From the NCBI RefSeq assembly GCF_014725735.1, contig NZ_CP061368.1:1813225-1877224 (forward strand): a stretch of 64,000 nt of DNA. Reading direction: 5' to 3'. Below are positions 41,933 through 63,624 of the stretch, in pieces. The notes beneath the pieces were generated by a model, which saw only the letters and a program-made list of their open reading frames with translations, was not told where the DNA came from and did no database searches. The translations under genes and the position numbers were made by a program. The stretch comes from Wenzhouxiangella sp. AB-CW3. Lineage in GTDB: Bacteria; Pseudomonadota; Gammaproteobacteria; Xanthomonadales; Wenzhouxiangellaceae. Each line of letters starts with the position of its first letter. The first letter of the stretch is position 1.

Positions 41933-42267
41933 CTAGCGGGCCATGCGGTTAATAAGGTAACACTCAGCCGTCGCACAAGCGTCGTGGGCAAGGCGCGCGA
42001 GCGCAGAACTGGCCGTCGCAATTCAAGCGAGCGGAACACGTGCAGCGGCTCCACTCGCAAGGCTTCATTCGCTACGCGAAAGTCGCCATGCGGTTTCGCC
42101 TGCCCTGCCCACGGCGCTTGTGCGACGACCCTTCGGGAGTCATTGTGCTGGCGCGACTCGGCGTTGCGTTTCTTGGCAAGGACGCTGCCATTCCCTGCGA
42201 AACGCACCTTGATTCGCGCCAGCACAGTGGCTCTGAGCGTTACCGTATTAACCGCATGGCCCACTAG
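41933..42267. repeat. Nested palindromic element 1 (335 bp)
   Basis: The outer arms are 41933-41965 and 42235-42267, 33 bases each with three mismatches, starting and ending with CTAG. Inside are two successive hairpins. The first has arms 41970-41990 and 42106-42126 (21 bases, one mismatch). The second has arms 42145-42159 and 42211-42225 (15 bases, one mismatch). Each strand could fold into a three-way junction. A minus-strand frame runs through it but its translation follows the palindrome and shows no protein features. It lies between two convergent genes. Confidence 0.8.
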
Positions 42268-42403
42268 GCGGTTATCCACCGACTTGATCTTTCTGAATTC
42301 TTCATCGATGACTATTCCCCGTTGATTATCTCGCTTCTCGATGCGGTGCCAACGGTCCTGGTGCCATATTTCGGCGTAGTCCGCATCGAAGGGGATGCCG
42401 ATA

Positions 42404-42805
42404 TCAGTTTGGGTACATAACAAATCCCAGAATCATGATCAACATGATCCACAGCCAGGCCGGAATCGCAACCAGTGATTGGAGCGTCGAGTTCGCTGCT
42501 GCCTGATTGGGCAACATCCCTTCTGCAGTAAGCCGGGGAAAGATCGCGACAGAGTAAGCAATGCCGGAAACAAAGAAAATCAGGTAACCCCTGCTCGAAA
42601 AGTGCAGTTCCTTCAGAACCACTCCGATCTCCGTGCCCAGCAACGCAGCCACATTTGCAGACAAGAGAATTACGGCGGCTATCGGGAAGACACCCCACCC
42701 GTCTACGCTTCTGAAACTGAAACCATAATCGCACAGGTAGCGCGCAAAGAAATAGACAGTTGGAGCGATCAGCAAGACTATGGCAATGGTGATACTCATG
42801 GACAT
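42404..42805 (-). CDS. Small four-helix membrane protein, unknown
   Basis: This 133-residue protein consists of about four hydrophobic helices, for example ITIAIVLLIAPTVYFFARYL, GVFPIAAVILLSANVAALLG, GYLIFFVSGIAYSVAIF and LWIMLIMILGFVM. I do not recognise the family. The ATG at 42805 is preferred over a TTG eight codons upstream. No strong ribosome-binding site is visible. It belongs to a stretch of small membrane proteins with more AT-rich DNA than the window average. Confidence 0.55.
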   Translation of the reverse strand: MSMSITIAIVLLIAPTVYFFARYLCDYGFSFRSVDGWGVFPIAAVILLSANVAALLGTEIGVVLKELHFSSRGYLIFFVSGIAYSVAIFPRLTAEGMLPNQAAANSTLQSLVAIPAWLWIMLIMILGFVMYPN

Positions 42806-42877
42806 ATGATCAGGTGAGATTCCAGCCAATCAGTGCATGCACCAAACCCTTGAATAGTTTTCATCCAACATGTGCAT

Positions 42878-43150
42878 CTATCCGAAAAGGCTAGCGAAAA
42901 TACTCGCAATCGCCTCGAAGATGCTGAGGATGCCATCAAGAATCGCCTCGAAAATCTCTGTAATAACCTCCAGCACTCCATCCCCGTTGACTATAATCGG
43001 AGTTGCGACACCGGCTGCGGCCAGTAGCAGTCCTGCGACAGCTATGATCTGGAAACCGGAAAACAGAATAGCCAGACCTGAGGCGAGCAGTAGGAGTGCA
43101 CATACTGCATTGAGTGTCCTGAGATGTATCGATCTATTCTTTCGCTTCAT
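42878..43150 (-). CDS. Small membrane protein with amphipathic C-terminus
   Basis: This 90-residue protein has a basic start (MKRKNRSIHLRT), two closely spaced hydrophobic segments (VCALLLLASGLAILFSGF and AVAGLLLAAAGVATPIIV) and a C-terminal tail with the repeated theme ITEIFEAILDGILSIFEAIA. The tail would form an amphipathic helix with Phe/Ile on one face and acids on the other. AGGGG lies six bases before the ATG at 43150; another ATG is immediately upstream. The family is unknown to me; membrane association is the only safe statement. Confidence 0.55.
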   Translation of the reverse strand: MKRKNRSIHLRTLNAVCALLLLASGLAILFSGFQIIAVAGLLLAAAGVATPIIVNGDGVLEVITEIFEAILDGILSIFEAIASIFASLFG

Positions 43151-43197
43151 CATAAACCCCTCATTTCCATGGTGCTTCAAGTCAGTTTAGAAAGAGT

Positions 43198-43380
43198 TTA
43201 CTCAGCTTTTGCTATAAGCGGAGGAAGCAAGACAAGAATAAATGTTGCAACGGGTCCGAGCAGAATCGAGAGGAGCCACCAGTTCAGCCCGGAGCGTCCT
43301 TTTCCCTGCGCAAGCCCGGCATTAATCAGCGAAAGCGTTCCCCAGCCAGCAACCCATCTTCCAGTACCACCTACGTCCAT
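43198..43380 (-). CDS. 60-residue membrane protein
   Basis: This short protein has a glycine-rich N-terminal part (GGTGRWVAGWGTLSLINAGL) and one clear transmembrane segment, WLLSILLGPVATFILVLLPP. The segment SGLNWWLLSILLGPVATF resembles short conserved membrane proteins seen in several gammaproteobacteria, whose function is unknown. GGGAGG lies ten bases before the ATG at 43380. It is 47 bases upstream of the previous small membrane gene, so the two may form an operon. Confidence 0.6.
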   Translation of the reverse strand: MDVGGTGRWVAGWGTLSLINAGLAQGKGRSGLNWWLLSILLGPVATFILVLLPPLIAKAE

Positions 43381-43921
43381 GATCTTCAAACCTCCCTATG
43401 AAAAAACTAACAATGGACACAGTCTGAAACTGGACCATGAGAGCTGCCCTTGAGAAGGGGCCTCTGTCTGTAATGGCGCCGCTTAAGCTCAGGGCTGGGT
43501 GCTCGAGGCACACTCACTTGCCTGTCCCAAGCCTGGTGCGGGATTGAGATGCGGAAACATCGCATGAGCAAAAGGATCTATCGATGGACTCCGCCAACGC
43601 CAAAAGACTGTGTAGATCGCACGTATTCACGATCAAGCTCCCATGATCTGCCAAAACAATCCACCCTGCCCCTTCCCGTGTCGGGGTGGATTGTGGCTTA
43701 CTTTACCACCTTGGGGCCGGGCTTTCCAGCGGCACACAGGGCTGGATGAGGACTGGCCGTGACATGGCTGGAAATTGGCGATCTTCATAGCTTTCTTACC
43801 CTTCCTCGATCCAATTTCCTACGTTGATACGCGCGGATCGCCTATTGTGCTGATGTGCACGGGGTTCCATCATCAGGATTCAGGAGGCAGTCAATCGATT
43901 ACTGATGAGGAGAATTTCATC
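43381..43921. other. Intergenic region of about 540 bases with one hairpin
   Basis: No convincing gene was found between the small membrane protein and the unknown protein at 43922. A short open frame at 43549-43749 runs through the hairpin at 43656-43694 and has no recognisable features. The region probably holds the promoters of both divergent transcripts, but no clear -35/-10 pair stands out. Confidence 0.5.
43656..43694. repeat. Hairpin in a long intergenic region
   Basis: ACAATCCACCC and its perfect complement form an 11-bp stem around a 17-base loop that itself contains CCCGTGTCGGG. It is not next to a gene end, so a terminator role is unclear. Confidence 0.5.
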
Positions 43922-45544
43922 ATGACACAACGTCGACTAACCAATATAGCCAGACAGCGACTCCTGGAGCCGCTTCTGCGCCACCGCGATCTGGAGCTCA
44001 GGGAGCCCCAGCGATTCATTCCAAGGCTGCTTCGCCCCTGCCGAGTCAGGATTCTGATGGTGGCCGATGGTTCTCTCAACTTCGGCGACAGTTTCTTCGG
44101 CCTGTCTACACTGGTCCGAACCCTGCTGGACACACCGCCGGGCCCATGGGTCACGTTCGAGATCTCGCTTGCCCACATGGGCAATGGCACCCTGATGGAA
44201 GCAGACGGGATCAAGCGCAGGATCAACAACTTCCGGTTTGACGATTCCAGTCACTTCTCCAAAAGCGATTATGACCAGGTCTGGTTGTTCGGGATTCTGA
44301 CCAGCTACGCAAGCAGAAATGACAACGACGAGGAAACTCTGACAAGCGCAGAGCTCGATGTGCTCCATGAGTTCATGGATGATGGTGGTGGTGTATTCGC
44401 CACTGGCGACCATGGTGCTCTTGGGAGAGCAATGTGCTCTGGCATCAAGCGGGTCCGCGGGATGCGATTGTGGGAAGGCGATGAGAACAGCACAGTTAGC
44501 ATGGCCGGGGCAACTCGGAACGATACCAATGTCGTTCCCGAAAACGGAGAATGGGCCACAACCCTGGAAACAGACCATATTCCGCAGCGGATTCAGCCGA
44601 AGCTGTATACCTTCGGGTTCGGGATCACGCGACGCACGTATCCGCACCCGTTGCTATGCGGCCCGGACGGAAGGATCACCGCCATGCCCGACCATCCCCA
44701 TGAAGGAGAGTGCGTTCTGCCGGGCAATGAGTATGCCTCGGACTTTCCCGGTGAAAGTGATTCAGATGGCCCCTGGCCGGAAATCATCAGTCAATCTACC
44801 GTGGAGGAAGGATTGGGAGGACAGTTCAAGGATCCAACGAACTGCCAGGTGTTCGGAGGCATATGCGCCTATGACGGTCATGATGCCGAAGTGGGTCGAG
44901 TCGTCACCGATGCTACGTGGCACCATTTTGTGAACTACAATCTGAATGGCTTTATCGGGGACGATGAAGGTGAAGCCGCCCTCGATCAGATCCAGCACTA
45001 CTATCGCAACCTTGCAGTCTGGCTGTCGCCCTCGAACATGATTCGTTGCATGAACCGTCGCAAGACCCTGTTGATTCTGTTGCGCAGTCATGTGGTCGAA
45101 GCCGTGTCGAGCCGCTCTCACCCTCGCCTGCAGCAGCTTTCGACATCGTTCATATGGGATGTCGGTGTTCATGCCCGGGATGTGCTGGGCCGGGAAGCCA
45201 GTCAATGCCAGGCTTTCGAATGGATGCTGGATCTGATCAGGCCGAATGTGCCGGACCTGGTGCTGGATGTCCTTCACCCATGGCGGCGCAAGCCTCGGCC
45301 GATTCCCTCCGGCGACCCCATTCCCTGGATCAACCTGGAGCCCATGGCGGAAATCGGCTTTGGAGGCGCCCTGCTTGCGGTTCACGAGCAGCTCGACAAG
45401 CTTGATCCGAAGCGCCTCGAAAAGGACGAAAGTCAACTGGACAAAATCATGGCCCAGGGCGTGAGTGAGGCGCTGAGAAAGGCGACTCCCTCTCTTGCCG
45501 AATCCGTGAAAGCCCTGTCCGAAGTCGCGGGCAGAATACGCTAG
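43922..45544 (+). CDS. Unknown protein with ThuA/GATase-like N-terminal region
   Basis: This 540-residue protein begins at an ATG preceded by GAGGAG nine bases upstream; no signal peptide is visible. The N-terminal half has CRVRILMVADGSLNFGDSFF, YDQVWLFGILTSYAS and HEFMDDGGGVFATGDHGALG. That alternation of strand, acidic turn and the GGGVFATGDH segment resembles the class I glutamine amidotransferase fold of ThuA-like proteins. A later GGICAYDGHDAEVGRVVTDA and TWHHFVNYNLNGFIGDDEG fit the same idea. The C-terminal 150 residues are mostly helical. The function is unknown. It stands alone, after a long intergenic region. Confidence 0.65.
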   Translation: MTQRRLTNIARQRLLEPLLRHRDLELREPQRFIPRLLRPCRVRILMVADGSLNFGDSFFGLSTLVRTLLDTPPGPWVTFEISLAHMGNGTLMEADGIKRRINNFRFDDSSHFSKSDYDQVWLFGILTSYASRNDNDEETLTSAELDVLHEFMDDGGGVFATGDHGALGRAMCSGIKRVRGMRLWEGDENSTVSMAGATRNDTNVVPENGEWATTLETDHIPQRIQPKLYTFGFGITRRTYPHPLLCGPDGRITAMPDHPHEGECVLPGNEYASDFPGESDSDGPWPEIISQSTVEEGLGGQFKDPTNCQVFGGICAYDGHDAEVGRVVTDATWHHFVNYNLNGFIGDDEGEAALDQIQHYYRNLAVWLSPSNMIRCMNRRKTLLILLRSHVVEAVSSRSHPRLQQLSTSFIWDVGVHARDVLGREASQCQAFEWMLDLIRPNVPDLVLDVLHPWRRKPRPIPSGDPIPWINLEPMAEIGFGGALLAVHEQLDKLDPKRLEKDESQLDKIMAQGVSEALRKATPSLAESVKALSEVAGRIR

Positions 45545-45660
45545 GCCACACGAAGATTGCAGGCAGTCCGGTAAGCTCCGGGCTGTCCTGCCCCGTTGGG
45601 CAAACGACCGCAATAGCCTACCATCGCCAGATTGCGATCAGGCGCCTTTGCGCCCTGCAA

Positions 45661-45849
45661 TCAGAGATCGTTTACACGCTTCTCCAGCACTGCAAGCAGG
45701 TCATTGAGCACATCTTCTGGTATTTCATAAAGGGGCAGCACCTGACTCGTGCCTTCAAGGACGATCACTCGCTCGAGTCCAAACTGACGAGTCACTTTGA
45801 CCCCACTGAGTCTTGAAAGATCAGCTCTTATGCTTGACCCATACTTCAA
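45661..45849 (-). CDS. Small hypothetical protein (62 residues), uncertain
   Basis: The frame encodes a 62-residue soluble protein with strand-like ERVIVLEGTSQVLPLYEIP and an acidic helix at the end (VLNDLLAVLEKRVNDL). A TTG at 45849 is preceded by GAGGGAG at suitable spacing. The frame is open about 13 more codons upstream and that part also looks protein-like (TPKTRIILEGDVL), so it may be the remainder of a longer gene. No family recognised. Confidence 0.35.
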   Translation of the reverse strand: MKYGSSIRADLSRLSGVKVTRQFGLERVIVLEGTSQVLPLYEIPEDVLNDLLAVLEKRVNDL

Positions 45850-45961
45850 TACATCTCCCTCGAGTATGATGCGGGTCTTCGGTGTTCTTCGAATGGCAGT
45901 GGCTTACTGCTCTCCCACTTGAACTCAGGCATACTTTTGTCATCTGCAAACGGCCTTTGCT

Positions 45962-47314
45962 TCAACCCTGACCTACGGCTTTTTCATACAGGCCTGGAAA
46001 ACGGCCCTCGGGATCGCATTTCTGTTTTAGCTCCTGGTAGGCCTTCTGGTTGTATTCGGACCAGAAGGTTTCCTCGTCGTAGGTGCTGCTGGAATACAGG
46101 CTTTTCTTGCCGCCGTGTCTGGCCACCAGCGCCTCGACGCGGGCGTTGTAGTGGCCGTCCGGTTGGCGTGAACGCACCAGGTCCCAGAAACCAAAATTGA
46201 TATAGGCCGTGTCGGTACGCAGTTCGAACAGCGAGAAACGCCCGTCGGGTACCACGAATGGGCAGATCCAGACCGGGCGGATGCCGATCTCGGCCTCGAA
46301 GTCGGCCAGGAATGCAGCGGCGTTGGCGATGGGGATGTCGACGTCCTGGATGACCGATTCGGTGCGCGGACGAACGTGTTGCAGCAGGCTCAGTGGAAAG
46401 CGACGACTGGCGCGCATGATCTTCTGGTAGGTGATGCTGGACAGGCGCTTTCGTCCCAGCAGCAGGCGCACGGGCTTGAGGTGGGCGCCGATGTTCTTGC
46501 TGCACCAGAACCAGTCGGTGTCCCAGCGCCACAGGTAGTCGTGAATGCTCAGATAATCTTCGCCACGTTCGCGCAGGCTCTTCCAGTACTGGCGCATCCA
46601 GGTGTAGTCACTGGCTTCAATGCCGGCAGGCAGCGACTCTACAAGGTATGCACGCGTGAGCACCCAATCATCGGGCGCGAAGTAGACGCCGTCGAGATAA
46701 TCACAGCCCGGCTGTCCACATTCGGCCGCCATGGCCTCGAACAGGGCATCGGGGTCGCGGTAGCGCGTATGTTCCAGGCGCACCCAAGGCTGCACCGGAA
46801 TCAAATCAACGCGAACGCGGGTGGCATAGCCCAGACTGCCATAGGAGTTCGGAAACCCAAAGAACAGGTCCGATTCCCTGTCGGGTGAACAGGTGAGGAC
46901 ACGGCCATCGGCGACCAGCACGTCCAGCTCCCGAACGGTGTCATGGACCAGCCCGTAGCGAAAAGCACTGGATTCGATGCCCAGGCCGGTCACCGCCCCG
47001 CCCACGGTGATGCTCTTCAACTCCGGCACGATGGCCGGCGCGAAGCCGTGCGGCAAGGTGGCGTCGACCAGGTCGACGTAGGTGGTCATGCCTTCGACTT
47101 CGGCCACCCCTGCCCCGCTGTCGACATCAATGACATGGTTGAGATGGGTCACGTCGAGTTCGGTGCGCTTCAACTCCGCGCGCGGGCGAAACAGGTTGCT
47201 GGTTCGCTTTCTCAAACGGACCGGTCCGGTGGATTCTGACAGGGCGTTGGCAACGGCCCTGACTCGTGCATGATGCGCGGACCAGGTGGCGCCATGAGAT
47301 GAACGATCAGCCAT
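45962..47314 (-). CDS. FAD-binding oxidoreductase, possible 10-methylene fatty acid reductase
   Basis: This 450-residue protein has an FAD-binding type 4 domain: VIDVDSGAGVAEVEGMTTYV, then SITVGGAVTGLGIESSAFRY and YGSLGYATRVRVDLIPVQPW. The C-terminal half contains WFWCSKNIGAHLKPVRLLLG and SLYSSSTYDEETFWSEYNQK. The arrangement resembles actinobacterial FAD enzymes (BfaA/TmsA type) that work with a CFA-synthase-like methyltransferase to make 10-methyl fatty acids. Its ATG overlaps the TGA of such a methyltransferase gene (TGATG). The lipid role is inferred from this pairing; plain FAD oxidoreductase is certain enough. Confidence 0.8.
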   Translation of the reverse strand: MADRSSHGATWSAHHARVRAVANALSESTGPVRLRKRTSNLFRPRAELKRTELDVTHLNHVIDVDSGAGVAEVEGMTTYVDLVDATLPHGFAPAIVPELKSITVGGAVTGLGIESSAFRYGLVHDTVRELDVLVADGRVLTCSPDRESDLFFGFPNSYGSLGYATRVRVDLIPVQPWVRLEHTRYRDPDALFEAMAAECGQPGCDYLDGVYFAPDDWVLTRAYLVESLPAGIEASDYTWMRQYWKSLRERGEDYLSIHDYLWRWDTDWFWCSKNIGAHLKPVRLLLGRKRLSSITYQKIMRASRRFPLSLLQHVRPRTESVIQDVDIPIANAAAFLADFEAEIGIRPVWICPFVVPDGRFSLFELRTDTAYINFGFWDLVRSRQPDGHYNARVEALVARHGGKKSLYSSSTYDEETFWSEYNQKAYQELKQKCDPEGRFPGLYEKAVGQG

Positions 47315-48444
47315 CAGCGCACCGGCTCATAGCGAGACACATCGCCGAGGCTCAGGACCATCTGCCAAAGATTCAGACCACGGGCCCGGAAGGCGCCGGC
47401 GCAACTCAGCAGGTAATAGCGCCACATGCGGTAGAAGCGCTCGTCCAGCCCTTCCCTGTCAGACAGCTCCGGCCAGGCGGCACGAAAATTGGCCTCCCAG
47501 CCCCTGAGCGTGCGGTCATAGTCGGGTCCGAAGTTGTGCCAGTCTTCCAGCACGAAGCGGCCATCAAGGGCCGAGGCAAGCTGTGCGACGGAAGGAATCA
47601 CGCCGTAGGGAAAAATGTACTTGCCGATCCACGGGTCCACATCGTTGCGACTGACATTGCCGCCAATGGTGTGTATCAGCGCCAGCCCGCCCGGCTTGAG
47701 CCGCTCTCTGGCCAGGTCGAAGAAGCCGCGGTAGTTCTTCGGCCCGACATGTTCCATCAGGCCAATGCTCACCACGCGATCGTACTGAACGGAATCGCCG
47801 GCCGCGTCGCGATAGTCCTGCTCACGGATTTGCACCGGCAGACCGTCGCAGAGCCCGCGCGCATACTCCACCTGGCGCCTGCTGATGTTGTAACTGACGA
47901 CTTCGCAGTCATGCTCGGCGGCAAGATAGCGCGCCAGCTCACCGAAGCCGCCACCCAGCTCGAGCACCTTCATGCCCGGCTCCAGGTGCAGCTTGCGCGC
48001 AATCAGCGACAGCTTGGCCTGCTGCGCCTCGTCCAGCGTGGCCTTGCTGCCGTCGGGGCCATAGTAGGCACAGGTGTACTGCATGGTCGGCCCCAGCATG
48101 GCTTCGTAAAGCCGATTGGAAAGATCGTAATGCTGTTCGGCCACTTTCCGCGACCGGCGCCGGCTCTGGAGATTGCCCAGCCTGCTCAACAGCACCTGTC
48201 CGAGTACGGCCGGCGACCGCACTTTCCGATCCAGCCGCGCTTTCAAAAGCCGGCAGAAGAACTCGTCGAGCTCGTCGACATCCCACCAGCCGTCCATGTA
48301 AGCCTCGCCCGCGCCCAGCGAACCCTCGGCCATGATCCGATCGTAGAGACGCTCATCATGCACCTGGATGTCCCAGGGCCGTCCCCCGCCGACCTCGACG
48401 CCGGCGAACTCCAGTAAAGCAGTCACCTTTTCTCTTGCCGACAC
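47314..48444 (-). CDS. Cyclopropane-fatty-acyl-phospholipid synthase family methyltransferase
   Basis: This 376-residue enzyme uses S-adenosylmethionine to modify double bonds of membrane lipid acyl chains. Family motifs are PTMQYTCAYYGPDGSKATLD, the SAM-binding loop VLELGGGFGELARYLA, YDRVVSIGLMEHVGPKNYRG and the C-terminal YDRTLRGWEANFRAAW. The product could be a cyclopropane or, together with the overlapping FAD oxidoreductase, a 10-methyl branched chain. It is the first gene of a two-gene operon. A TetR-type regulator gene lies 107 bases upstream on the same strand. Confidence 0.93.
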   Translation of the reverse strand: MSAREKVTALLEFAGVEVGGGRPWDIQVHDERLYDRIMAEGSLGAGEAYMDGWWDVDELDEFFCRLLKARLDRKVRSPAVLGQVLLSRLGNLQSRRRSRKVAEQHYDLSNRLYEAMLGPTMQYTCAYYGPDGSKATLDEAQQAKLSLIARKLHLEPGMKVLELGGGFGELARYLAAEHDCEVVSYNISRRQVEYARGLCDGLPVQIREQDYRDAAGDSVQYDRVVSIGLMEHVGPKNYRGFFDLARERLKPGGLALIHTIGGNVSRNDVDPWIGKYIFPYGVIPSVAQLASALDGRFVLEDWHNFGPDYDRTLRGWEANFRAAWPELSDREGLDERFYRMWRYYLLSCAGAFRARGLNLWQMVLSLGDVSRYEPVR

Positions 48445-48551
48445 AGCCGAATCCTCGCTAGAAATCGTGTGTTCGGAACGGGACCTGCCGGGATGCCAGC
48501 CCGACAGACTTTCGGAAAGACTAAATCGCCAATAGTCACGCGGTCAAGACG

Positions 48552-49100
48552 TCAGGACTTCAATTCACCTGGCGCGGTCAGGGCGCGCTGCAACAGCTGG
48601 TCCATGGCTCGCCACTCTTCGGCGCTGACCAGTCCGTTCAACTGCTGTACCCCGACAAAGTGGGCGTACACCAGTTTCGCGACCAGTGCCGCTTGAGCGG
48701 AATCGCGCAGTTGCGCTGCAATCAGTCGGGTCAGAAAATCCACCCGCTCCTGGTCCACGGCCTCCAGGCGCACGGCCACGTCGTCGTCGTAACGAGCCCA
48801 GGCGCGGATGGCGTTCTCCGGGCCGGTATCTGCGCTGCGCACCAACTGCGATAGCGTAAAACTTTGCTTGTGAGAAGTTTCGATGGCTTCGACTGCCTCG
48901 ATAATGCTGCGCGTGTTGCGTTGCCGCCAGTAATCCATCAACGCTTCCACGTAAGCCTCGCGGTGCGCGAAATGGTGATAGAAAGATCCCTTGGTGACCT
49001 TCAGGTGGGCACAGAGCCGATCCACTTTCAGATGTTCCGGCCCCAGGCGAGCCAGGACGGTCAGCCCCCGCTCCAGCCAGTCGTCCCGCGACAGGGTCAC
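48552..49100 (-). CDS. TetR family transcriptional regulator
   Basis: This 182-residue regulator has the TetR helix-turn-helix at its N-terminus: LTVLARLGPEHLKVDRLCAH then VTKGSFYHHFAHREAYVEAL. The rest is a helical ligand-binding domain. The GTG at 49100 overlaps the TGA of the DUF6463 gene (GTGA), so the two are coupled. The frame is open upstream but that part overlaps DUF6463 in another frame. A 21-base palindrome before the DUF6463 gene is a likely operator for this protein. Confidence 0.9.
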   Translation of the reverse strand: MTLSRDDWLERGLTVLARLGPEHLKVDRLCAHLKVTKGSFYHHFAHREAYVEALMDYWRQRNTRSIIEAVEAIETSHKQSFTLSQLVRSADTGPENAIRAWARYDDDVAVRLEAVDQERVDFLTRLIAAQLRDSAQAALVAKLVYAHFVGVQQLNGLVSAEEWRAMDQLLQRALTAPGELKS

Positions 49101-49486
49101 CGCGCCGGCTCTGACTTGCGTCCACCCAGCAGGATCAACAAACCCTGTGCGATCACCAGCCAGGCACCGGAGGCCGGCAGCACCATGGCCACCAGGACAC
49201 CATTGGCCAGCAGTCCCCAGCCGATCTGGGCCGGCAGCGGACGGCCGGTGTGATTCAACCACTGCTGCATCAGGTGACCCAGCATCATCCAGAAAAAGCC
49301 CAGAACCAGAAACCACAGCATGGCACTGCGGGCAAAATCCATTTCACCACCGGTCTGGATGCTGTTCCACCAGCCATCGGCATGAATACCGGCGATGATG
49401 CCCCAGCCCGTCACCAATCCAATGGTGTTGTGAATGATGCCGGTCGCCAGAAGATACCAGCCGCTGTACTTGGCCAATGAAATCAC
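49097..49486 (-). CDS. DUF6463-like membrane protein
   Basis: This 129-residue protein has four hydrophobic segments, including YLLATGIIHNTIGLVTGWGI, SAMLWFLVLGFFWMMLGHLM and ASGAWLVIAQGLLILLGG. The first helix with its conserved His and Gly matches DUF6463. The function is unknown; such proteins are often encoded beside TetR regulators. The start is a GTG with AAGGA nine bases upstream. It is the first gene of an operon with the TetR gene. Confidence 0.8.
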   Translation of the reverse strand: MISLAKYSGWYLLATGIIHNTIGLVTGWGIIAGIHADGWWNSIQTGGEMDFARSAMLWFLVLGFFWMMLGHLMQQWLNHTGRPLPAQIGWGLLANGVLVAMVLPASGAWLVIAQGLLILLGGRKSEPAR

Positions 49487-49515
49487 GTATCCAATCCTTC
49501 GAGTTCACAAGAAAC

Positions 49516-49536
49516 AATACCATACGGTATGGTATT
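49516..49536. promoter_or_regulatory. Perfect palindrome, likely TetR-type operator
   Basis: AATACCATAC and GTATGGTATT form perfect 10-base arms around a central G. It lies 30 bases upstream of the DUF6463 start and 52 bases before the divergent membrane protein gene. Odd-centred palindromes of this size are typical of TetR-family operators, so the linked TetR protein probably controls one or both genes. Confidence 0.75.
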
Positions 49537-49588
49537 CTCCAGTGCCCGTCAAGAAATACGAAACCGACAAAGGACTGAAGAAAAGACC

Positions 49589-50296: not shown

Positions 50297-50358
50297 ACTG
50301 TTGGGGAATGATTCGATGCCTGTTCCGGATTCGCCTGTTCCCGCACAGTGCGCTGCCT

Positions 50359-51243: not shown

Positions 51244-51255
51244 TGATTCTGCTCA

Positions 51256-51361: not shown

Positions 51362-51370
51362 GACCGCATT

Positions 51371-51653
51371 ATTAACCCGGCACGAATGTAGATCGCATTC
51401 AGCCGCAGTGTGCGCTTCGGCAGCAAGGCAGCGAAACGCCGCTGTAGCACTCCTACAGCAAGTTTCGATAACGCAGTCTGCCGAAGCGCACACTGCGGCC
51501 TGACTTTTTAGAATCAGATAGTTAGGGGCTTCAATCAGGGCCCGACTCTGCGTTCTCGCTCTTGCCAAGGGAATCACCCTTGGCGGCGAGCGACGCCTTG
51601 ATTCGGGCCCTGATTGAAGCCCTGAATGTGATCTACATTCGTGCCGGGTTAAT
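51371..51653. repeat. Nested palindromic element 2 (283 bp)
   Basis: The outer arms are 51371-51402 and 51622-51653, 32 bases with one mismatch. Inside are two successive perfect hairpins: arms 51402-51423 with 51478-51499 (22 bases) and arms 51526-51545 with 51603-51622 (20 bases). The loops contain smaller hairpins, such as GCTGTAG/CTACAGC and CCAAGG/CCTTGG. The arrangement repeats that of element 1. It lies between the decayed gene copy and the end of the beta-barrel gene, and no reading frame in it looks like a protein. Confidence 0.85.
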
Positions 51654-51685
51654 AGTAAGATTGAGGGTTGTAGAGGGCCGCACTG

Positions 51686-53832: not shown

Positions 53833-53856
53833 GAGGTTCCTCGATGAGTTGTACTG

Positions 53857-56271: not shown

Positions 56272-56412
56272 GGATTGGCGTCATCAGCACTCGGGATGGG
56301 TGAATCAGACTACCGAGGCCTCACCGGTAAAGATTGATATCGTGCGGCCGAAAATTGATAATTCACGAACCTGACATCACGAACCCGATACCCCGAACCC
56401 GATGGAACCCAC

Positions 56413-57474
56413 ATGACTGGCAAACCGGCCACAGACCCGGCGATCTCCACCCGACCCGACGACTTAGAGGCAGCCTATCGCCGTTCCGCCCTGCAGATCA
56501 TCAGCGCCTATCACCACTTTGTGCGACACGGTACACAGCCCCCCGGAGAGCTACACCCGAGCCGCGACGTCGGGCACTCGGAGATCAATGCAGCCGGTAT
56601 CTGGAAACACGCACTTGAAATCGGCCAGGACGAGCACCTCGGTCTTCGGGCGGGCGTGGCGCTGGCGCAGCACATCAGCAGCGACTTCCTGGCCACCGTG
56701 GCAGTTAACAGCATGAGTGTGGGCGAGGCGCTGGAGAATCTGTGCCGGTACCACGCCCTGTATTCCAGCCCCCCTCACCCCGAATTCGAGAAGCTTGGTG
56801 ATGGCGCACGGGTCACCCTGCAGATGCCGGCCGGAGAGCCAGGCGGGGAATCAGACGGAGAGATCGACAGGGATGTCCATCGACACATGAGCGAATCTCT
56901 GTTCGCGGCCATCGTCACGACACTTTCGACCGTCTGCAGGCAAGGGGTATATCCAACCCGGGTCCGGTTTTCCTGGCCCGCGCCGGACGATACCGCTCGC
57001 CATCAGGCTATCTTCAGGGCAACGCCGCAATTCGCCGCAAACGACTGCTCGATGGCATTCTCCGCCAGCACACTCAAGACCACCATTCCATTCGCCGACC
57101 CTTCCCTGCTGTCCACACTGACCGGCCATGCCGACCGCCGGCTGGATGCCGTTCGACAAAACGAATCGTGGGGGGATCGGGTCCGGTCAGTGGTATCCCA
57201 AAGCGCACCGTCCGTCGACATCCGGGCCGTTGCCGCCAGCCTTTGCATTGGCCCGAGAACCCTTCAGCAAAGACTGCAATCCGAAGGCACCACGTTCCAG
57301 AACATCATTCGCGACGTCAAGCTGACAATGGCCAGGCAATTGATGACCGACGGTGCTCTGCCGTTGGCGGAGATTGCCCTGCTGTTGGGTTATTCAGAGC
57401 AAAGCGCATTCAATCACGCTTTCAAGCGGTGGACTGGTTTAACGCCGAAGCAATATCGTAATCGTCAGCAATGA
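56413..57474 (+). CDS. AraC family transcriptional regulator
   Basis: This 353-residue regulator has an N-terminal ligand-binding domain of the kind found in OruR/ArgR-type AraC proteins, with HISSDFLATVAVNSMSVGEA. The C-terminal DNA-binding domain has IRAVAASLCIGPRTLQQRLQ and ALPLAEIALLLGYSEQSAFN, followed by HAFKRWTGLTPKQYR. It is transcribed away from the MMPL-LolA-barrel operon with 141 bases between, so it probably controls that operon. No clear ribosome-binding site is visible before the ATG. Confidence 0.92.
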   Translation: MTGKPATDPAISTRPDDLEAAYRRSALQIISAYHHFVRHGTQPPGELHPSRDVGHSEINAAGIWKHALEIGQDEHLGLRAGVALAQHISSDFLATVAVNSMSVGEALENLCRYHALYSSPPHPEFEKLGDGARVTLQMPAGEPGGESDGEIDRDVHRHMSESLFAAIVTTLSTVCRQGVYPTRVRFSWPAPDDTARHQAIFRATPQFAANDCSMAFSASTLKTTIPFADPSLLSTLTGHADRRLDAVRQNESWGDRVRSVVSQSAPSVDIRAVAASLCIGPRTLQQRLQSEGTTFQNIIRDVKLTMARQLMTDGALPLAEIALLLGYSEQSAFNHAFKRWTGLTPKQYRNRQQ

Positions 57475-57513
57475 CGCATTGACTGGGCTTGAGTGGAACC
57501 TCCACGTGCGAGA

Positions 57514-57604
57514 TCCCGGATATCGCCTGCGGCGATTCCGGGACGACCTGTGGGGAGTTGCTCCTCGTGGCTCCGTATGCCTCCTGCGACCATTCCGGGA
57601 CGAC
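57514..57604. repeat. Short hairpin and direct repeat (REP-like)
   Basis: The 22-base unit CCTGCGGCGATTCCGGGACG plus AC (57526-57547) recurs at 57583-57604 with three differences. The first copy is also the right half of an imperfect hairpin starting at 57514 (TCCCGGATATCGCC against GGCGATTCCGGGA). It lies between the AraC and YdcF genes. Such short GC-rich palindromes resemble REP sequences. Confidence 0.45.
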
Positions 57605-57731
57605 GGGCCGGCAATACAGTTTGGAGAGAGTTGAATGGCTATTCAGGATCCTGCGCCTGCTTTTTGGCCTTAATTCATGGATAATCCTGTAAGCCAGCAA
57701 AGGATGAGCTACTCGACTAAGGAAATCAGGC

Positions 57732-58505
57732 ATGGAGATCTTTCTTTCCAAGTTCATTCCGCTGTTTCTCTACCCCATGGGGGTACTGAGCAGCGTGCTG
57801 GTTCTTGCTGCCGTACTACTATTCCTTGGGCGGGTTAGAGCTGCCCGAGCTGTGGTGATTGTTGCGCTGGTGATTGCTTTTGGTGCAGGCAACAGTTGCG
57901 TGTCTCACAGCCTGGTGCGGAGCCTGGAGAGGGAGTACGAGTCGCTGCCGGTTGAGGTTGTTGACAAGGCGGATGTGATGATCGTTCTGGGTGGCGGCCT
58001 GGGCTTGCCCTACCCACCTAGAGAATATGCACGCCTCTCCACCGGATCTGACCGCCTGCTACATGCGTTGCGTCTGTACCAGGCCGGCAAGGCTGAACAC
58101 ATTCTGCTGACCGGGGGCAATGTGTTTCCCCAGCCGGGGCTGGAGGCCGAATCCTGGTATGCGCGGGAACTTCTGATGCTCTGGGGCGTGCCGGACTCAG
58201 CCATCCACGTGGAGGCTGACAGCCGCAACACCCTGCAGAATGCACGGTTCAGTGCCAATACAATGTCCGAGCAAGGCTGGGAACGTGCCATTCTGGTGAC
58301 CTCGGCCACGCACATGCATCGCGCGGTTCTCACTTTCCGAAGTGTTGATATTGACGTGGTGCCGGTCGCGACAGACTTCATTGCCACCGAGGGACATGAC
58401 CCGGCAATCCTTGGCTGGGTACCCACTGCCGAGGCCATGGTGGGAACCACACATGCCCTGCGTGAATACCTGGGACGACTTTGGTACCGAGTGAGGCTTT
58501 CATAG
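57732..58505 (+). CDS. YdcF/ElyC family (DUF218) protein
   Basis: This 257-residue protein has two N-terminal helices (PLFLYPMGVLSSVLVLAAVL and AAVLLFLGRVRAARAVVIVA) followed by the DUF218 domain. Domain motifs are VMIVLGGGLGLPYPP, EHILLTGGNVFPQPGLEAES, AIHVEADSRNTLQNARFSAN and AILVTSATHMHRAVLTF. In E. coli, ElyC/YcbC of this family supports cell-envelope synthesis, while YdcF binds SAM. The reaction is not established. It stands between the AraC gene and the convergent GNAT gene. Confidence 0.9.
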   Translation: MEIFLSKFIPLFLYPMGVLSSVLVLAAVLLFLGRVRAARAVVIVALVIAFGAGNSCVSHSLVRSLEREYESLPVEVVDKADVMIVLGGGLGLPYPPREYARLSTGSDRLLHALRLYQAGKAEHILLTGGNVFPQPGLEAESWYARELLMLWGVPDSAIHVEADSRNTLQNARFSANTMSEQGWERAILVTSATHMHRAVLTFRSVDIDVVPVATDFIATEGHDPAILGWVPTAEAMVGTTHALREYLGRLWYRVRLS

Positions 58506-58919
58506 CCGGGTCGATTTGATCAGCTTCATGCCAACACAGGCCGGGCCTGTGAAGGTAAACCCGTACTTTCGATACAAGTGATGAGCTTCCCCGTCAGCCA
58601 GCAAGCTGACAAACCCGGATTCTGGAACCTCTCTGTCGATATAGTCGGCAATCGCCGCTATGATCGACTTTCCCAGGCCATGTCCCTGGTGTTCAGGAAG
58701 TATCGCGATGTCTACGACCTGAAAGAATGTGCCACCATCACCGATCACGCGGCCCATGCCAACCGGCTCACCCCTGAAAAGCACCTGAACCGCAAACAAG
58801 GTATTGGGCAGTCCACGCTCGGCTGCCTCCGCGCTCATGGGGCTCAGCCCCGTGGCCTGGCGGAGATGTCTATAGGTCTCAGTGCTCGGTGTCGATTGGA
58901 TCAGTTCGTATTCACTCAT
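58500..58919 (-). CDS. GNAT family N-acetyltransferase
   Basis: This 139-residue protein has the GNAT fold. The acetyl-CoA binding motif A is DIAILPEHQGHGLGKSIIAA, preceded by the strand VGMGRVIGDGGTFFQVV and followed by YRKYGFTFTGPACVGMKLI. The substrate is unknown. It lies 2 bases after the threonine dehydratase-like gene on the same strand and its end overlaps the end of the YdcF gene by six bases. Confidence 0.92.
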   Translation of the reverse strand: MSEYELIQSTPSTETYRHLRQATGLSPMSAEAAERGLPNTLFAVQVLFRGEPVGMGRVIGDGGTFFQVVDIAILPEHQGHGLGKSIIAAIADYIDREVPESGFVSLLADGEAHHLYRKYGFTFTGPACVGMKLIKSTRL

Positions 58920-58921
58920 GT

Positions 58922-59899
58922 TCAGTCAATTGGTGTGCTGGAGGAGCGCGCTAGCACTCCTGCGAATACCTCACGGTCTACATTGCCTCCGGAAAGCACC
59001 AGTGCGACTTTTCGGCCGGCATTTCTTTCACATTCCTGCATGGCGGCGGCAGTAGCGGCAGCTCCCGCGCCTTCGCTTACATTGTGTGTACACTCGAACA
59101 GAAGCCGCATGGCTGCTGCCACTTCGTCATCGGTCACCGTGACCACGCGATGAACACCCCGCCAGATTACTTCAAGGGCGTCCGGATCGGGGACACGGCA
59201 GGCCATGCCGTCGGCAAGTCTTGTTTCTGCATCTGATTCGATAGCTGTGCCGGAGGCAAACGATTCGGCATAGGCTCGGGCATGGGCGGACACCACGCCG
59301 ACGATCTCCGTGCGCAATCCAAGCGCATCGCGTGCAGCCACCATTGCACAGATTCCCGATCCGAGACCGATAGGCACATAAATGACATCAATGTCTCGGA
59401 CCGTCTGCATCAGTTCGTAGGCATAGGTCGCCACGCCGGCCACCAGTAGCGGGTGGAAGGAACCCATCATGTGAAGGCCCCGATCGCGGGCAATCTTTGC
59501 TGCCTGCTCGCGAGCCGACTGGAAGTCTTCTCCGTGCTCGATCAGCTCGACGCCCAGGGCGCGCATGGCAGCATTCTTCTCCACGCTGTTGCCGTGAGGG
59601 GCAAGCACGGTGGCTGGAACGCCGTAATGCCGTGCAGCGAACCCCAGAGATTGACCATGGTTGCCACGAGTCGCGCTGACGACCCCGTGCCTGAGTTCAT
59701 CGGTCTTTGCAAAGTGGGCAAAGTAAACCAGCCCGCCACGAATCTTGAAAGCGCCCACCGGAGTGTGATTCTCGTGTTTAACCCACACTTCGGTTCCAAG
59801 ACGCTCGCAAAGCAGTGGCCAGCAGTACTGGGGTGTTGGCGGCATATGGGAGTAAACGATCTCCGTTGCCGCCTGGATCTCCTCTATGCCCGGATTCAT
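58922..59899 (-). CDS. Threonine dehydratase-like PLP enzyme
   Basis: This 325-residue enzyme is a fold-type II pyridoxal-phosphate protein. The PLP lysine lies in HTPVGAFKIRGGLVYF, substrate binding in VVSATRGNHGQSLGFAARHY, and the phosphate loop in YVPIGLGSGICAMVAARDAL. A GGN segment near the end (ALVLSGGNVDREVF) completes the pattern. There is no ACT regulatory domain, so it is the catabolic or related type. It might act on threonine, serine or a similar hydroxy-amino acid. The ATG at 59899 is preferred over a TTG two codons upstream. Confidence 0.9.
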   Translation of the reverse strand: MNPGIEEIQAATEIVYSHMPPTPQYCWPLLCERLGTEVWVKHENHTPVGAFKIRGGLVYFAHFAKTDELRHGVVSATRGNHGQSLGFAARHYGVPATVLAPHGNSVEKNAAMRALGVELIEHGEDFQSAREQAAKIARDRGLHMMGSFHPLLVAGVATYAYELMQTVRDIDVIYVPIGLGSGICAMVAARDALGLRTEIVGVVSAHARAYAESFASGTAIESDAETRLADGMACRVPDPDALEVIWRGVHRVVTVTDDEVAAAMRLLFECTHNVSEGAGAAATAAAMQECERNAGRKVALVLSGGNVDREVFAGVLARSSSTPID

Positions 59900-59912
59900 G
59901 AACAAAGACCCG

Positions 59913-60821
59913 TCAGGTCCGCTCGATGCGACCGTCGATCCGGCCGTTCACGACCAGGTTCACGCGCTCGTCAATGCGCAGGTTGCCGAGCACATGCGAG
60001 TCGGCGTCGACTTCAACGGTTGGCAAGTCTTCAGTGTAGTCCTCGGGCAGAGTGATGACGATATCACCGCGAACCTCGCTGCCTCCAAGAATGCGGACAC
60101 TACCGGCTTCCGGGTAAGTGCGGGCGGAGCCCAGGCCGAAAAAACCACCGCGGCGCCCGCTATGATCAATGGTGATCTCGATAGTGACATCACCGTCCAC
60201 CCGGCTGTTGTCGCGCACGATCATGTCGCCACTCAGGGTTTGCAAGCTGGTGACATGAGCACCTTGTAGCTCTATATCACCATTGCGGGTGCTGACGGGA
60301 CCACTGACTTCGCTCCCGGACTTGATGTGGATGCGCCCATTGCGGGTCCTCACTTCTTCGGTGACCCGCACATTGGAATCGACTGAAATGCTGCCATTTC
60401 GGGTTCGCACTCCGTTGTCGATGATGCTGTCACGACCGATCGAAAGGCTGCCATTGCGCGTGCCAAGACGCTCGGCATGCGTACCGTCGCCGATGGAAAT
60501 TGAGCCGTTGCGGGTACTGATCCGACCGAATTGGCCGTCACGGCCAGTGCGCACCCCACCGTTGCGGGTGGAAATATCGCTGGCAACCACCTGATCACCC
60601 AGGGAGACGCTGCCATTCCGGCTTCGCACATCGCCATCGATGCGGGCGCCATCGTCAATGGAGATCGCACTGTTTCGGGTCTCCACCGTGCCCTCGTGGT
60701 GAGCGCCCGCGGAGATATTGATGCGCTCGGATGCCTGAAGCGGCAGCGCCAGGCTCATGGACACGACAAGTGCCACCAAAAGCCCGGTAGACCCCCTGAG
60801 AATGTTCTTGATGCCTTGCAT
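59913..60821 (-). CDS. Secreted beta-helix protein with asparagine ladder
   Basis: This 302-residue protein has a signal peptide (STGLLVALVVSMSLALPLQA) and a striking repeat. The motif Thr/Ser-Arg-Asn-Gly recurs eight times, with asparagines at residues 50, 69, 87, 105, 123, 142, 161 and 180, a period of 18-19. Each turn reads like TRNGSISIGDG plus a short loop. This is the pattern of a parallel beta-helix, possibly left-handed given 18-residue coils. The final third departs from the repeat. GGAGG lies before the ATG at 60821. It is divergent from a two-component system and lies 13 bases upstream of the threonine dehydratase-like gene. Confidence 0.8.
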   Translation of the reverse strand: MQGIKNILRGSTGLLVALVVSMSLALPLQASERINISAGAHHEGTVETRNSAISIDDGARIDGDVRSRNGSVSLGDQVVASDISTRNGGVRTGRDGQFGRISTRNGSISIGDGTHAERLGTRNGSLSIGRDSIIDNGVRTRNGSISVDSNVRVTEEVRTRNGRIHIKSGSEVSGPVSTRNGDIELQGAHVTSLQTLSGDMIVRDNSRVDGDVTIEITIDHSGRRGGFFGLGSARTYPEAGSVRILGGSEVRGDIVITLPEDYTEDLPTVEVDADSHVLGNLRIDERVNLVVNGRIDGRIERT

Positions 60822-61032
60822 GCTTACCTCCTGGAACAACGGTTGATCGATCGTGACAACCATTACACCATTATTGCAAGCCCCACGCATGTGCCGCAGG
60901 TCACCCATGGCCACCGGCACCGGCAGGTTCGCCGTGTTCATGGCACCGGAATTCAGCTCAAACGGGGTGCCGGAAGTCATGACTTCCGTGTTCAGGCTTG
61001 TCCGCAGACTTTCGCGGGGGTATACAGGGATC

Positions 61033-62187
61033 ATGCAACGCAACCCCGTCTTCCAGTGGCGTGAGCTGCTCTCGCCGCTTGCCCTGGCCTCCTACGCGGC
61101 CTGGCTGGCAGTGTATCTGACCAACAGTGGATGGGTCGGACTGCCCGACGGCGACTCCGGCCTGGCCGGCCAGGTACTGATGTGGACCTTTCTGGCCGCC
61201 TGGCTGGTGTTGCTGTCGCTGGAGTTTGGCCAGGGTCGGAAAGTGGCCGATGTTGGCATTGTGGTGCTGGCCGCCTGTGCGCTGGGCTTGCTGACCCTGG
61301 GGCATTCCAGCACCGGCGCCATCCTGCTGGTGCTGCTGGCCACCCAACTGGCAGGACGATTCGAGGGCCGCGGACTGCTCGTTTCGCTGGTGATCGTCAA
61401 CCTGGTCTTTGCCCTGATCATGTGGCAGATCTGGAACTATCCGCCGGTCTGGATCGTGCTGACGCTGGCCTCCTACGCTGCCTTCCAGGCTTTTGCCGCG
61501 CTGGTGATGCACTACGCGATCAAGGCCGAGTCCATGGCAGAGGAACTCCAGGAGGCCAATGCTCACCTGCTGGCCACCCGTTCTCTGCTCGGCGAAGCGG
61601 CCCGCGACCAGGAACGGCTGCGATTGTCGCGCGAACTGCACGATGTCGCCGGTCACAAGCTAACTGCGCTCAAGCTCAACCTGCGCCAGCTCTCGCGGCG
61701 ACCCGAACTCAATGACTGCCAGGAGCTGGAAACGGCTGCCAGCCTGGCCGACGAACTGCTCGGCGACTTGCGCGCCGTGGTGCGCCAGCTTCGTGATCAC
61801 GACGGAATCGACCTGGGCCATGGCATCCGACAACTTATCGAGCCGCTGCCCAGTCCGCGGGTCAAGCTGGCGCTGGAAGCGTCCCTACGCATCCCCGGCA
61901 CCTGCCAGGCCGAAACCCTGCTGCGAATCGTGCAGGAAGGCCTCACCAATGCCGTTCGCCACGGCCATGCCCGCAACGCCTGGCTTGGCCTGCAACGCAA
62001 TGGCAACGATATCCTGCTGCAACTCGAAGACGACGGCAGCCTGTCCTGGCCGATCCAGCCCGGCAACGGCCTGACCGGCATGCGCGAACGCTTGCAGGAG
62101 CTAGGGGGCAGCCTGCAACTCGAGCCTTCCTCGCGCGGCGGCCTGAGCCTCACCGCAAGATTGCCTGCCGCAACGGTGTCGTCATGA
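61033..62187 (+). CDS. NarL-type sensor histidine kinase
   Basis: This 384-residue kinase has about six N-terminal transmembrane helices and no large periplasmic domain, so it probably senses a membrane signal. The phospho-accepting histidine is His203 in SRELHDVAGHKLTALKL (HisKA_3 type). The ATPase has IVQEGLTNAVRHGHARNAWL and QLEDDGSLSWPIQPGNGLTG with MRERLQELGG. The ATG at 61033 begins just before the first helix. The stop overlaps the response regulator ATG (ATGA). The divergent beta-helix gene is a possible target. Confidence 0.92.
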   Translation: MQRNPVFQWRELLSPLALASYAAWLAVYLTNSGWVGLPDGDSGLAGQVLMWTFLAAWLVLLSLEFGQGRKVADVGIVVLAACALGLLTLGHSSTGAILLVLLATQLAGRFEGRGLLVSLVIVNLVFALIMWQIWNYPPVWIVLTLASYAAFQAFAALVMHYAIKAESMAEELQEANAHLLATRSLLGEAARDQERLRLSRELHDVAGHKLTALKLNLRQLSRRPELNDCQELETAASLADELLGDLRAVVRQLRDHDGIDLGHGIRQLIEPLPSPRVKLALEASLRIPGTCQAETLLRIVQEGLTNAVRHGHARNAWLGLQRNGNDILLQLEDDGSLSWPIQPGNGLTGMRERLQELGGSLQLEPSSRGGLSLTARLPAATVSS

Positions 62188-62816
62188 GCATTCGCATCGC
62201 TTTGGCCGACGACCAGGCCCTGGTACGCGAGGGCTTGAAGGCGCTCATCCGGGAGCTGGATGGCATTGATGTCGTCATCGAGGCAGAATCCGGCGAGGCC
62301 GTGCTGCAGGCGTTGGCCGACACCGCCATCGACCTGATTCTGTCGGACATCCGCATGCCCGGCATCGACGGCATCGCACTGACCCGAAAACTGGCCGAAA
62401 CGCACCCCGACCTGCCGGTACTGTTGCTGACCACCTTCGATGAAGATGCCTTGATGCTGGAAGCCGCCGAAGCCGGCGCGCGCGGGTTCTTGCTCAAGGA
62501 CGTCTCACCCGAGGAGCTGGAGTCGGCAATTCATGATGTGGCAGCGGGCAAGAGGCTGATGCAACCGGTCGCGACCGAGTCGGTGCGCCGCAACTTTCGC
62601 TATACAGACAACTCACCCACAATAGAGCAATTCACGGGTCGCGAGATCCAGATCCTGAGATTGCTGGCTGGCGGCTATTCCAACAAGGAGATCGCACGCA
62701 GCATCCACCTGGCCGAAGGCACAGTAAAGAACTACGTCTCCGACATCCTCGACAAACTCGACACCCGCGATCGCACCCGGGCAGTGCTCAAGGCCATAAC
62801 CCTCAAAATCATATAA
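62184..62816 (+). CDS. NarL/LuxR-type response regulator
   Basis: This 210-residue regulator has a receiver domain with the phospho-accepting Asp55 in IDLILSDIRMPGIDGIAL and the lysine in ARGFLLKDVSPEELESAI. The C-terminal LuxR-type helix-turn-helix is FTGREIQILRLLAGGYSNKE followed by IARSIHLAEGTVKNYVSDIL. It is coupled by a four-base overlap to the kinase gene and is its obvious partner. Confidence 0.95.
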   Translation: MSIRIALADDQALVREGLKALIRELDGIDVVIEAESGEAVLQALADTAIDLILSDIRMPGIDGIALTRKLAETHPDLPVLLLTTFDEDALMLEAAEAGARGFLLKDVSPEELESAIHDVAAGKRLMQPVATESVRRNFRYTDNSPTIEQFTGREIQILRLLAGGYSNKEIARSIHLAEGTVKNYVSDILDKLDTRDRTRAVLKAITLKII

Positions 62817-62870
62817 TGGGTTTAACGGAAAGGCTCTTTTCAATCCACACAAAACCAAGAAGAGCTGGCC

Positions 62871-63218
62871 TTAAGGAGCCTCTGAATAACTCTGCGCGGA
62901 GCGCGTTTCTGCCTCAAAAGCCGCAGATCGTGTGGTGCGACCCGAGTGACAGTAGCCGTAGCTACGGCCGAGGGGCGCAACGCGCGAGATGCGGCTTTTG
63001 AGGCGAAACCCGAATGGGACGGGCCTTTGCGGGCGACCCGCTGCGTTTCGACTCGCTCATTAGGAATGACCAAACCACACGCGCTAATCGTTTCTTACCC
63101 AGGCGCTTCTTGCCTTCGGCAAATCGCACCTGGCACGAAACGGCGCTCGCCGAAGCCACACCGGGTCATCCCGCAAAGACCCGTCGCGCCCGTGCAGAGT
63201 TATTCAGAGGCTCCTTAA
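62871..63218. repeat. Nested palindromic element 3 (348 bp)
   Basis: The outer arms are 62871-62895 and 63194-63218, 25 bases and perfect, starting and ending with TTAA. Inside are two successive hairpins: arms 62911-62925 with 62990-63004 (15 bases, perfect) and arms 63018-63033 with 63170-63185 (16 bases, one mismatch). The first loop holds the perfect palindrome GCCGTAGCTACGGC (62955-62968). The right edge supplies the TAA stop of the ABM gene. It lies between that gene and the end of the response regulator gene, which converge. Confidence 0.85.
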
Positions 63219-63535: not shown

Positions 63536-63624
63536 GTTGGCCTCTTGTACTGCAAATCCAAGCAAATGAGATGATGCTGGCTGGGTCGGGGGAACGACAG
63601 TATCCGCTTATGCCAGTCATCTGC

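What the first reader, a model, noticed from the sequence alone, without database searches (positions are those of the whole stretch)
41933..63218. Three intergenic elements with the same nested-palindrome architecture
Elements at 41933-42267, 51371-51653 and 62871-63218 each have an outer inverted repeat (33, 32 and 25 bp) that encloses exactly two successive inner stems (21+15, 22+20 and 15+16 bp). A single strand could fold into a three-way junction, and double-stranded DNA into a cruciform. Their sequences look mostly unrelated, but size (283-348 bp), layout and intergenic position agree. The stems remain nearly perfect, which suggests recent spread or selection on pairing. They could be non-autonomous transposons, structured RNAs or targets of a single-strand transposase.
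Basis: partly seen in the sequence, partly recalled or inferred. Interest (0 to 1): 0.72.

Follow-up and report, generated by a model that had tools for sequence, protein, structure and literature searches.

The report
Folded mobile repeats with twin hairpins
The three palindromic elements belong to a widespread group of tiny, gene-less transposons that share a cloverleaf-like folded layout kept by matching changes on both sides of each stem, and what the fold does is not yet known.

Summary
All three elements fold far better than 100-200 shuffles (z -11.9, -21.7, -12.9), and each has further copies in its genome, a Wenzhouxiangella.

They are MITEs. E1's end agrees with the two ends of a 1.1-kb IS630 element of a Thiogranum MAG at 25 and 21 of 27 positions. 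Three E2-family copies sit inside E1-family arms, TA duplicated each time.

The new finding is the interior. The E1 and E2 families carry two facing copies of one ~97-nt hairpin (H): core letters conserved, stems free in sequence but paired. H was found in 41 of 61 genomes (own plus 60 relatives) and 82 of 274 drawn from the class, in elements with many end sequences and one geometry: outer stem, H, usually a 7-nt linker, inverted H, outer stem. H stems are paired in 95-97% of cells, 50-53% in shuffles.

E3 shares the layout; its H core is not shown. Verdict: MITEs with a conserved fold, IS630-type for E1; a new variant of a known kind. What H does is open. Seven library searches found no description.

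The parts
41933..41967 (+). E1 outer arm, left (C-TA flank plus IS630-type terminal repeat)
41968..42129 (+). E1 hairpin A, long-loop form of H (23 of the 26 rows have the short ~98-nt form)
   Evidence: partial model match 41967-42049, 33.8 bits
42130..42136 (.). E1 7-nt linker CCTTCGG
   Evidence: same linker class
42137..42233 (-). E1 hairpin B = H, 97 nt, 82.8 bits
42233..42267 (-). E1 outer arm, right
51370..51402 (+). E2 outer arm, left (TATTAACCCGGC end)
51402..51499 (+). E2 hairpin A = H, 98 nt, 85.3 bits (in the model's training set)
51500..51525 (.). E2 26-nt linker
51526..51622 (-). E2 hairpin B = H inverted, 97 nt, 87.8 bits (in the model's training set)
51622..51654 (-). E2 outer arm, right
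62871..62899 (+). E3 outer arm, left (GGAGCCTCTGA-type end)
62911..63004 (.). E3 hairpin A, 94 nt; stem pairs with the model at 15.1 bits, core letters not matched
63018..63185 (.). E3 hairpin B, 168 nt; no model match
63190..63218 (-). E3 outer arm, right

Best explanation
The elements are MITEs: gene-less transposons moved in trans. Shown: further copies of all three; for E1, ends shared with an IS630 element that carries a transposase; for the E2 family, TA duplication at three nested insertions. Shown: the interior of the E1 and E2 families and of a much wider group is a conserved fold, two facing ~97-nt hairpins (H) joined by a short linker inside paired outer arms, and pairing is kept while stem letters change. 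E3 is placed here by layout and copies only. Inferred (about 0.4): H works as folded DNA, a cruciform or single strand at the fork, that helps these very short elements bring their ends together or recruits a host factor, because H is kept with many different ends and so is not tied to one transposase. An RNA role (about 0.35) is the nearest rival.
For: Copies in the own genome: E1 family 8 near-full matches, E2 family 9 full, E3 family 2 full, each count with the window element included, plus fragments. 40 of 101 genomes match E1 and 20 of 101 match E2, own included. IS630: L219, 1,143 bp, 357-aa transposase, NF033545 280.3 bits, PF13358 86.1 bits; E1's end agrees with its left and right end at 25 and 21 of 27 positions, the end of L258 at 26 and 22. 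L254 (Microbulbifer): a 243-aa IS630 piece (203.1 bits) beside the same end, cut by the contig end. 42 of 54 distinct fam1-type sites, short variants included, are flanked C-TA-G. Nested insertions: TA on both sides in 3 of 3; joined flanks match a free arm at 36, 32 and 36 of 36. Pairing: changes on both sides in 30 of 119 pairs (E2 family, 21 sequences; shuffles 14.7) and 57 of 110 (E1 family, 26 sequences; shuffles 19.6), 0 of 500 shuffles as high. H stem across families: 94.9% (105 distinct rows) and 97.5% (52 distinct rows) of cells paired against 50.2% and 52.8% shuffled. Geometry: 33 of 39 facing H pairs have a 7- or 8-nt gap.
Against: No partner gene was seen in the own genus: all 14 genomes (of 299) that match the L219 protein lie outside it; PF13358 was found in 3 of 44 genomes, and the one copy in the own genome has, by eye, other ends. 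No empty site from a related strain was sought or found; the empty-site evidence comes from repeats within one genome. 12 of 54 fam1-type sites lack the C-TA-G flanks, and some E2-family copies lack the T or A flank. R1 found no H in 10 loci around transposase genes, so the transposase does not seem to need it. One-hairpin E1 copies sit at five sites (L056, L057, L059, L060, L062), so two H are not strictly needed, or B was lost in place. In the E1 family the cores are not more conserved than the linker (core A 0.215, core B 0.137, linker 0.125). E3 lacks a recognisable core. No partner is known for the E2 or E3 ends.
Confidence: 0.82

Rival explanations
1. H is an RNA device. Two inverted copies ensure that a transcript from either strand carries one H near its 5' side, whatever the orientation of insertion; it would act in RNA processing, termination or insulation.
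For: Some unpaired core letters are nearly invariant while stems vary. In the H reading G-T cells outnumber A-C cells 120:38 and 67:11, as expected if that strand folds alone; within the two families stem A has G-T 62 and A-C 8, stem B (read on the other strand) 17 and 47. Known MITE transcripts can act this way (Correia/NEMIS and RNase III, passages of PMC2229807).
Against: The excess of G-T sits mostly at two or three inner pairs: three pairs give 75 of 120, two give 38 of 67. The model itself may favour G-U over A-C. Over the six outer and stem helices of the two families G-T and A-C are 121 and 85 (summed). No transcript data. No Rfam family at gathering score in the window; over elements of 6 other loci only a plant microRNA family far below its gathering score (41.0 against 124 bits).
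Confidence: 0.35
2. No function: long inverted repeats are kept perfect by template switching at replication (quasi-palindrome correction), and copies spread only through their ends.
For: All stems, the outer one too, are kept paired; this process (recalled, not from a call) would produce two-sided changes without selection. In the E1 family core A (0.215) varies more than the stems (0.191, 0.186) and the linker (0.125).
Against: It does not explain core letters at 95-100% across families, nor the near-constant hairpin size and 7-8 nt linker (33 of 39 pairs). In the E2 family the linker varies three times as much as the cores (0.268 against 0.089 and 0.088).
Confidence: 0.15
3. Substrates of a single-strand (Y1/HUH) transposase, like REPINs.
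For: Facing hairpin doublets with compensatory changes resemble REPINs (passages of PMC3116915). One E2 copy holds an IS200-like Y1 gene between its hairpins (L054).
Against: TA duplications and IS630-type ends; no Y1 gene found in 20 of the 27 own-genus genomes searched. The L054 case reads as an insertion into a copy.
Confidence: 0.04

Closest known systems
IS630-derived MITEs such as RUP of pneumococcus (PMC2229807, passages seen)
   Same: Gene-less, intergenic, TA at the ends, terminal repeats like those of an IS630 element
   Different: RUP is 107 bp and no twin-hairpin interior is mentioned; here the interior is conserved across many end types
CIR repeats of Caulobacter and Brucella (PMC2229807, passages)
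   Same: Two long inverted repeats forming two arms joined by a linker, conserved exposed letters
   Different: No 5'-end to 3'-end stem enclosing the arms; GANTC motif; other bacteria
REPINs (PMC3116915, passages)
   Same: Inverted doublet, hairpin forming, compensatory changes, many extragenic copies
   Different: Short REP units linked to RAYT transposases; no outer terminal repeat with TA duplication in the passages
QMITEs of Coxiella (PMC5896051, passages)
   Same: Gammaproteobacterial MITEs with 21-28 nt ends (QMITE1) and very stable predicted folds
   Different: No facing pair of a conserved hairpin is described in the passages seen
MRSC-65-2 motif (PMC11109978, passages)
   Same: Covarying, multicopy, judged selfish, structure perhaps relevant as DNA
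   Different: A single long stem with a repeated UYCCGG

Membership tests
MITE | Short, terminal inverted repeats, no transposase | tested here: met
   335, 285 and 348 bp with 29-35 nt arms: too short for a transposase gene; overlapping ORFs were not searched for domains
MITE | Dispersed copies in the genome | tested here: met
   only two full copies for E3
MITE | Target duplication on insertion | tested here: met
   TA in 3 of 3 nested E2-family insertions; for E1 inferred from C-TA-G flanks in 42 of 54 sites; for E3 ambiguous
IS630-derived MITE | Ends shared with an IS630 element | tested here: met
   E1 only: L219. For E2 and E3 no partner found
IS630-derived MITE | Autonomous partner in the same genome | tested here: not met
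   Own genome: one DDE_3 gene whose ends look different by eye; L219 protein no match. Not required of a MITE whose partner was lost
Twin-H group described here | Two facing H hairpins with conserved core | tested here: met
   E1 (one hairpin strong, one weak) and E2 (both, but in the training set)
Twin-H group described here | Same, for E3 | tested here: inconclusive
   15.1 bits from one stem alone
REPIN | REP units with a RAYT/Y1 transposase in the genome | tested here: not met
   Y1 gene in 7 of 27 own-genus genomes; ends and TA duplication differ; REP motifs themselves were not searched
Rfam RNA family | Match at gathering score | tested here: not met
   0 in the window

The most novel reading that the evidence does not exclude
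H is one functional, folded nucleic-acid device that has been carried across the Gammaproteobacteria by many different transposon ends, mostly as two facing copies so that one H is presented by either strand. That would make it an orientation-independent cargo, or a host-factor docking site, shared by otherwise unrelated MITEs.
Probability: 0.35. Interest if true: 0.85.

Novelty: new variant of a known kind. Interest (0 to 1): 0.68.

Why it matters
MITEs are usually defined by their ends, with an interior of little account. Here the interior is a conserved part: one geometry and one hairpin core recur with many end sequences in about three in ten genomes sampled from the class (82 of 274). That points to a function of the fold and gives a defined, testable module for asking whether DNA cruciforms or transcripts help small transposons to spread. 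It also gives a model with which many unannotated intergenic palindromes could be named.

Tried and rejected
Rejected: IS5-type 4-bp duplication (CTAG/TTAA) as the rule: copies such as L050 and L051 have unequal 4-bp flanks but TA on both sides. No duplication at all cannot be told from TA duplication by letters alone at T|A sites; the IS630 ends favour duplication. Y1 transposase as mover. Two H-bearing elements in inverse order around a gene in L288 (and L353) as an autonomous element: I read them as separate insertions because each is a complete or contig-cut twin-H element; the ORFs between were listed for L288 but not searched for domains. Known RNA families (the other matches in L258 lie outside its element). 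IHF site in H: by eye the spacing of the recalled consensus does not fit; not scanned. Plasmids (two queries) and phages (one query): no match in distant mode. Viral contigs: two patterns, no match. A gene-context script that relies on GC3 bias missed real neighbours; kept only: no spanning ORF by its rule in 15 of 15 copies examined. In one search the L282 row was cut one base off; read by eye it shares 29 contiguous bases with the L219 left end.

Limits: A1 holds all 21 distinct E2-family sequences found; A2 holds 26 sequences: of 36 distinct found, 28 were prepared and L049, L227 and L252 were then left out and the window element added. The structures tested were folded from the first row of each alignment. 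L237 in A2 probably lies in the other orientation. A4 and A5 were fitted to the model, which leans towards its structure; six rows of A4 (E2, L228, L258) were in the training set, four are second readings of a hairpin on the other strand, and some loci overlap. Related sequences inflate shuffle tests. The class search scored at most 15 candidates a genome. Many loci were chosen for strong H matches or visible pairs. The 28% identity between arms is of arms as found, not put in register, so it is too low an estimate. The count of different ends (at least 14) is my grouping by eye.
Full report
Check of the observation. The three elements are present at the stated places and fold far beyond chance.

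Host. The genome is one contig of 3,844,697 bases. So the window is from that genus as the tool groups it; the species is not known.

Copies. E1 family: 8 near-full matches, plus truncated, one-hairpin and fam2-interrupted copies read. E2 family: 9 full copies at 99-100%, one copy interrupted by an IS200-like gene (L054), and many end remnants. E3 family: 2 full copies and fragments. Among own plus 100 relatives, 40 of 101 genomes match E1 and 20 of 101 match E2 at E up to 0.001. E3 was searched only in the own genome.

Mobility. An E1-end pattern recurs in 87 stretches of named genomes, 80 of them listed: Wenzhouxiangella, a Lysobacteraceae MAG and unnamed gammaproteobacterial MAGs for the most part, also Thiodiazotropha, Thiogranum, Thiohalomonas, Thioalkalivibrio, Microbulbifer and one Hydrogenedentota MAG. 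In the Thiogranum MAG (L219) such ends bound a 1,143-bp element with a 357-aa IS630 transposase. E1 agrees with its two ends at 25 and 21 of 27 positions. Two other candidates for long elements with this end (L207, L222) were chance right ends; L222 shows no transposase-sized ORF between. The flanks of fam1-type elements are C-TA-G in 42 of 54 distinct sites, which fits the CTAG preference of IS630 (recalled, not from a call). Three E2-family copies sit within E1-family arms with TA on both sides, and removing the element with one TA gives the free arm at 36, 32 and 36 of 36 positions. Against this, no partner gene was seen in the own genus, so present-day mobility there is inferred from near-identical copies.

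The fold. In the E2 family (21 sequences) 94.8% of pair cells are standard and 30 of 119 pairs show changes on both sides, 14.7 on average in shuffles. In the E1 family (26 sequences) it is 94.5% and 57 of 110, 19.6 in shuffles. No shuffle of 500 reached either count. Sliding the partners by 1-3 columns drops paired cells to 32-43%. Column variability cuts both ways: in the E2 family the cores vary least and the linker most (0.09 against 0.27), in the E1 family core A varies more than the stems and the linker.

The shared hairpin. The hairpins of the E1 and E2 families are 96-101 nt in their short form and share a core, CAAGGC ... CAAG ... AACGC. A covariance model of 30 of them (R1) finds 49 places in the own genome and 80 in G027 at E up to 0.01, matches in 41 of 61 genomes, and in 82 of 274 genomes drawn from the class at E up to 1e-4, 69 of 222 genera. 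64 sources gave 118 matches; 30 further loci, none in the training set, gave 59, at least two in 27 of 30; several of these loci had been picked because a pair was visible. Stem pairing across families: 94.9% and 97.5% against 50.2% and 52.8% shuffled.

Geometry. Of 39 facing pairs among the matches, 27 have a gap of 7 and 6 a gap of 8; the other six have 12 to 36. Four neighbouring pairs face apart (adjacent elements) and seven run the same way, four of those being second readings of one hairpin. Totals are mostly 264-275 bp, or 282-289 bp with a 25-26 nt linker and TATTAACCCGGC-type ends. All 11 class-level loci L375-L385 have an outer stem around hairpins. Of 117 loci examined by one script, 89 gave an outer stem around at least one hairpin, 84 of them distinct; arms are 93% complementary within an element. 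The outermost letters fall into a few types (AGTG..., TATTAACCCGGC, TAGCCCGCATATTTC, GGAACCTCTGA or GGGAAGCTCTGA, ACTAATG...), and the letters further in vary but stay paired.

Strand. In the H reading G-T cells exceed A-C cells 120:38 and 67:11, but a few inner pairs carry most of it, and over the outer and stem helices of the two families together the counts are 121 and 85. This hints that the H strand folds alone; it does not decide between RNA and DNA.

E3. Its ends (GGAGCCTCTGA) resemble those of L312, which has two model matches (48.2 and 22.3 bits), and it has the layout, but R1 sees only stem pairing in it. I file it with the others by layout and copies, not by core.

Literature. Searches (listings seen) and passages of seven papers (PMC4853749, PMC10969869, PMC3116915, PMC5896051, PMC3189936, PMC11109978, PMC2229807) gave no account of this twin-hairpin group. 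The library lacks most subscription journals and supplements could not be read, so an earlier description is possible.

Verdict. MITEs with a conserved folded interior, of IS630 type for E1; mobility and fold well supported for E1 and E2, weaker for E3; function of the fold open.

Noticed in passing
L054 (G000:C1:1202752-1204448): An E2-family copy is interrupted between its two hairpins by an IS200-like Y1 transposase gene; a gene with the same score lies at G000:C1:1518222-1518584.
   Followed up: partly
L056, L057, L059, L060, L062: E1-family copies that lack hairpin B and the linker at the junction, at different sites.
   Followed up: partly
L076 and L082: E2-type ends reduced to short palindromes (39- and 20-bp arms with a 5-6 nt loop) without the interior.
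   Followed up: no
L258 6312-6601 and 7001-7382: In Thioalkalivibrio ALMg11 an E1-type element lies between group II intron domains and a cspA thermoregulator match.
   Followed up: no
window 41853-41887: Perfect 15-bp inverted repeat with a 5-nt loop just after the end of the 38292-41840 ORF, terminator-like but without a clear T run.
   Followed up: no
window 63215-63218: The right end of E3 overlaps the stop codon of the ABM-domain ORF at 63215-63565 (-).
   Followed up: no
L323 and L325: Two different twin-H elements lie back to back with a CTAG between them.
   Followed up: no
window 26050-34647: An ORF of 2865 aa in the mechanical list, not examined.
   Followed up: no
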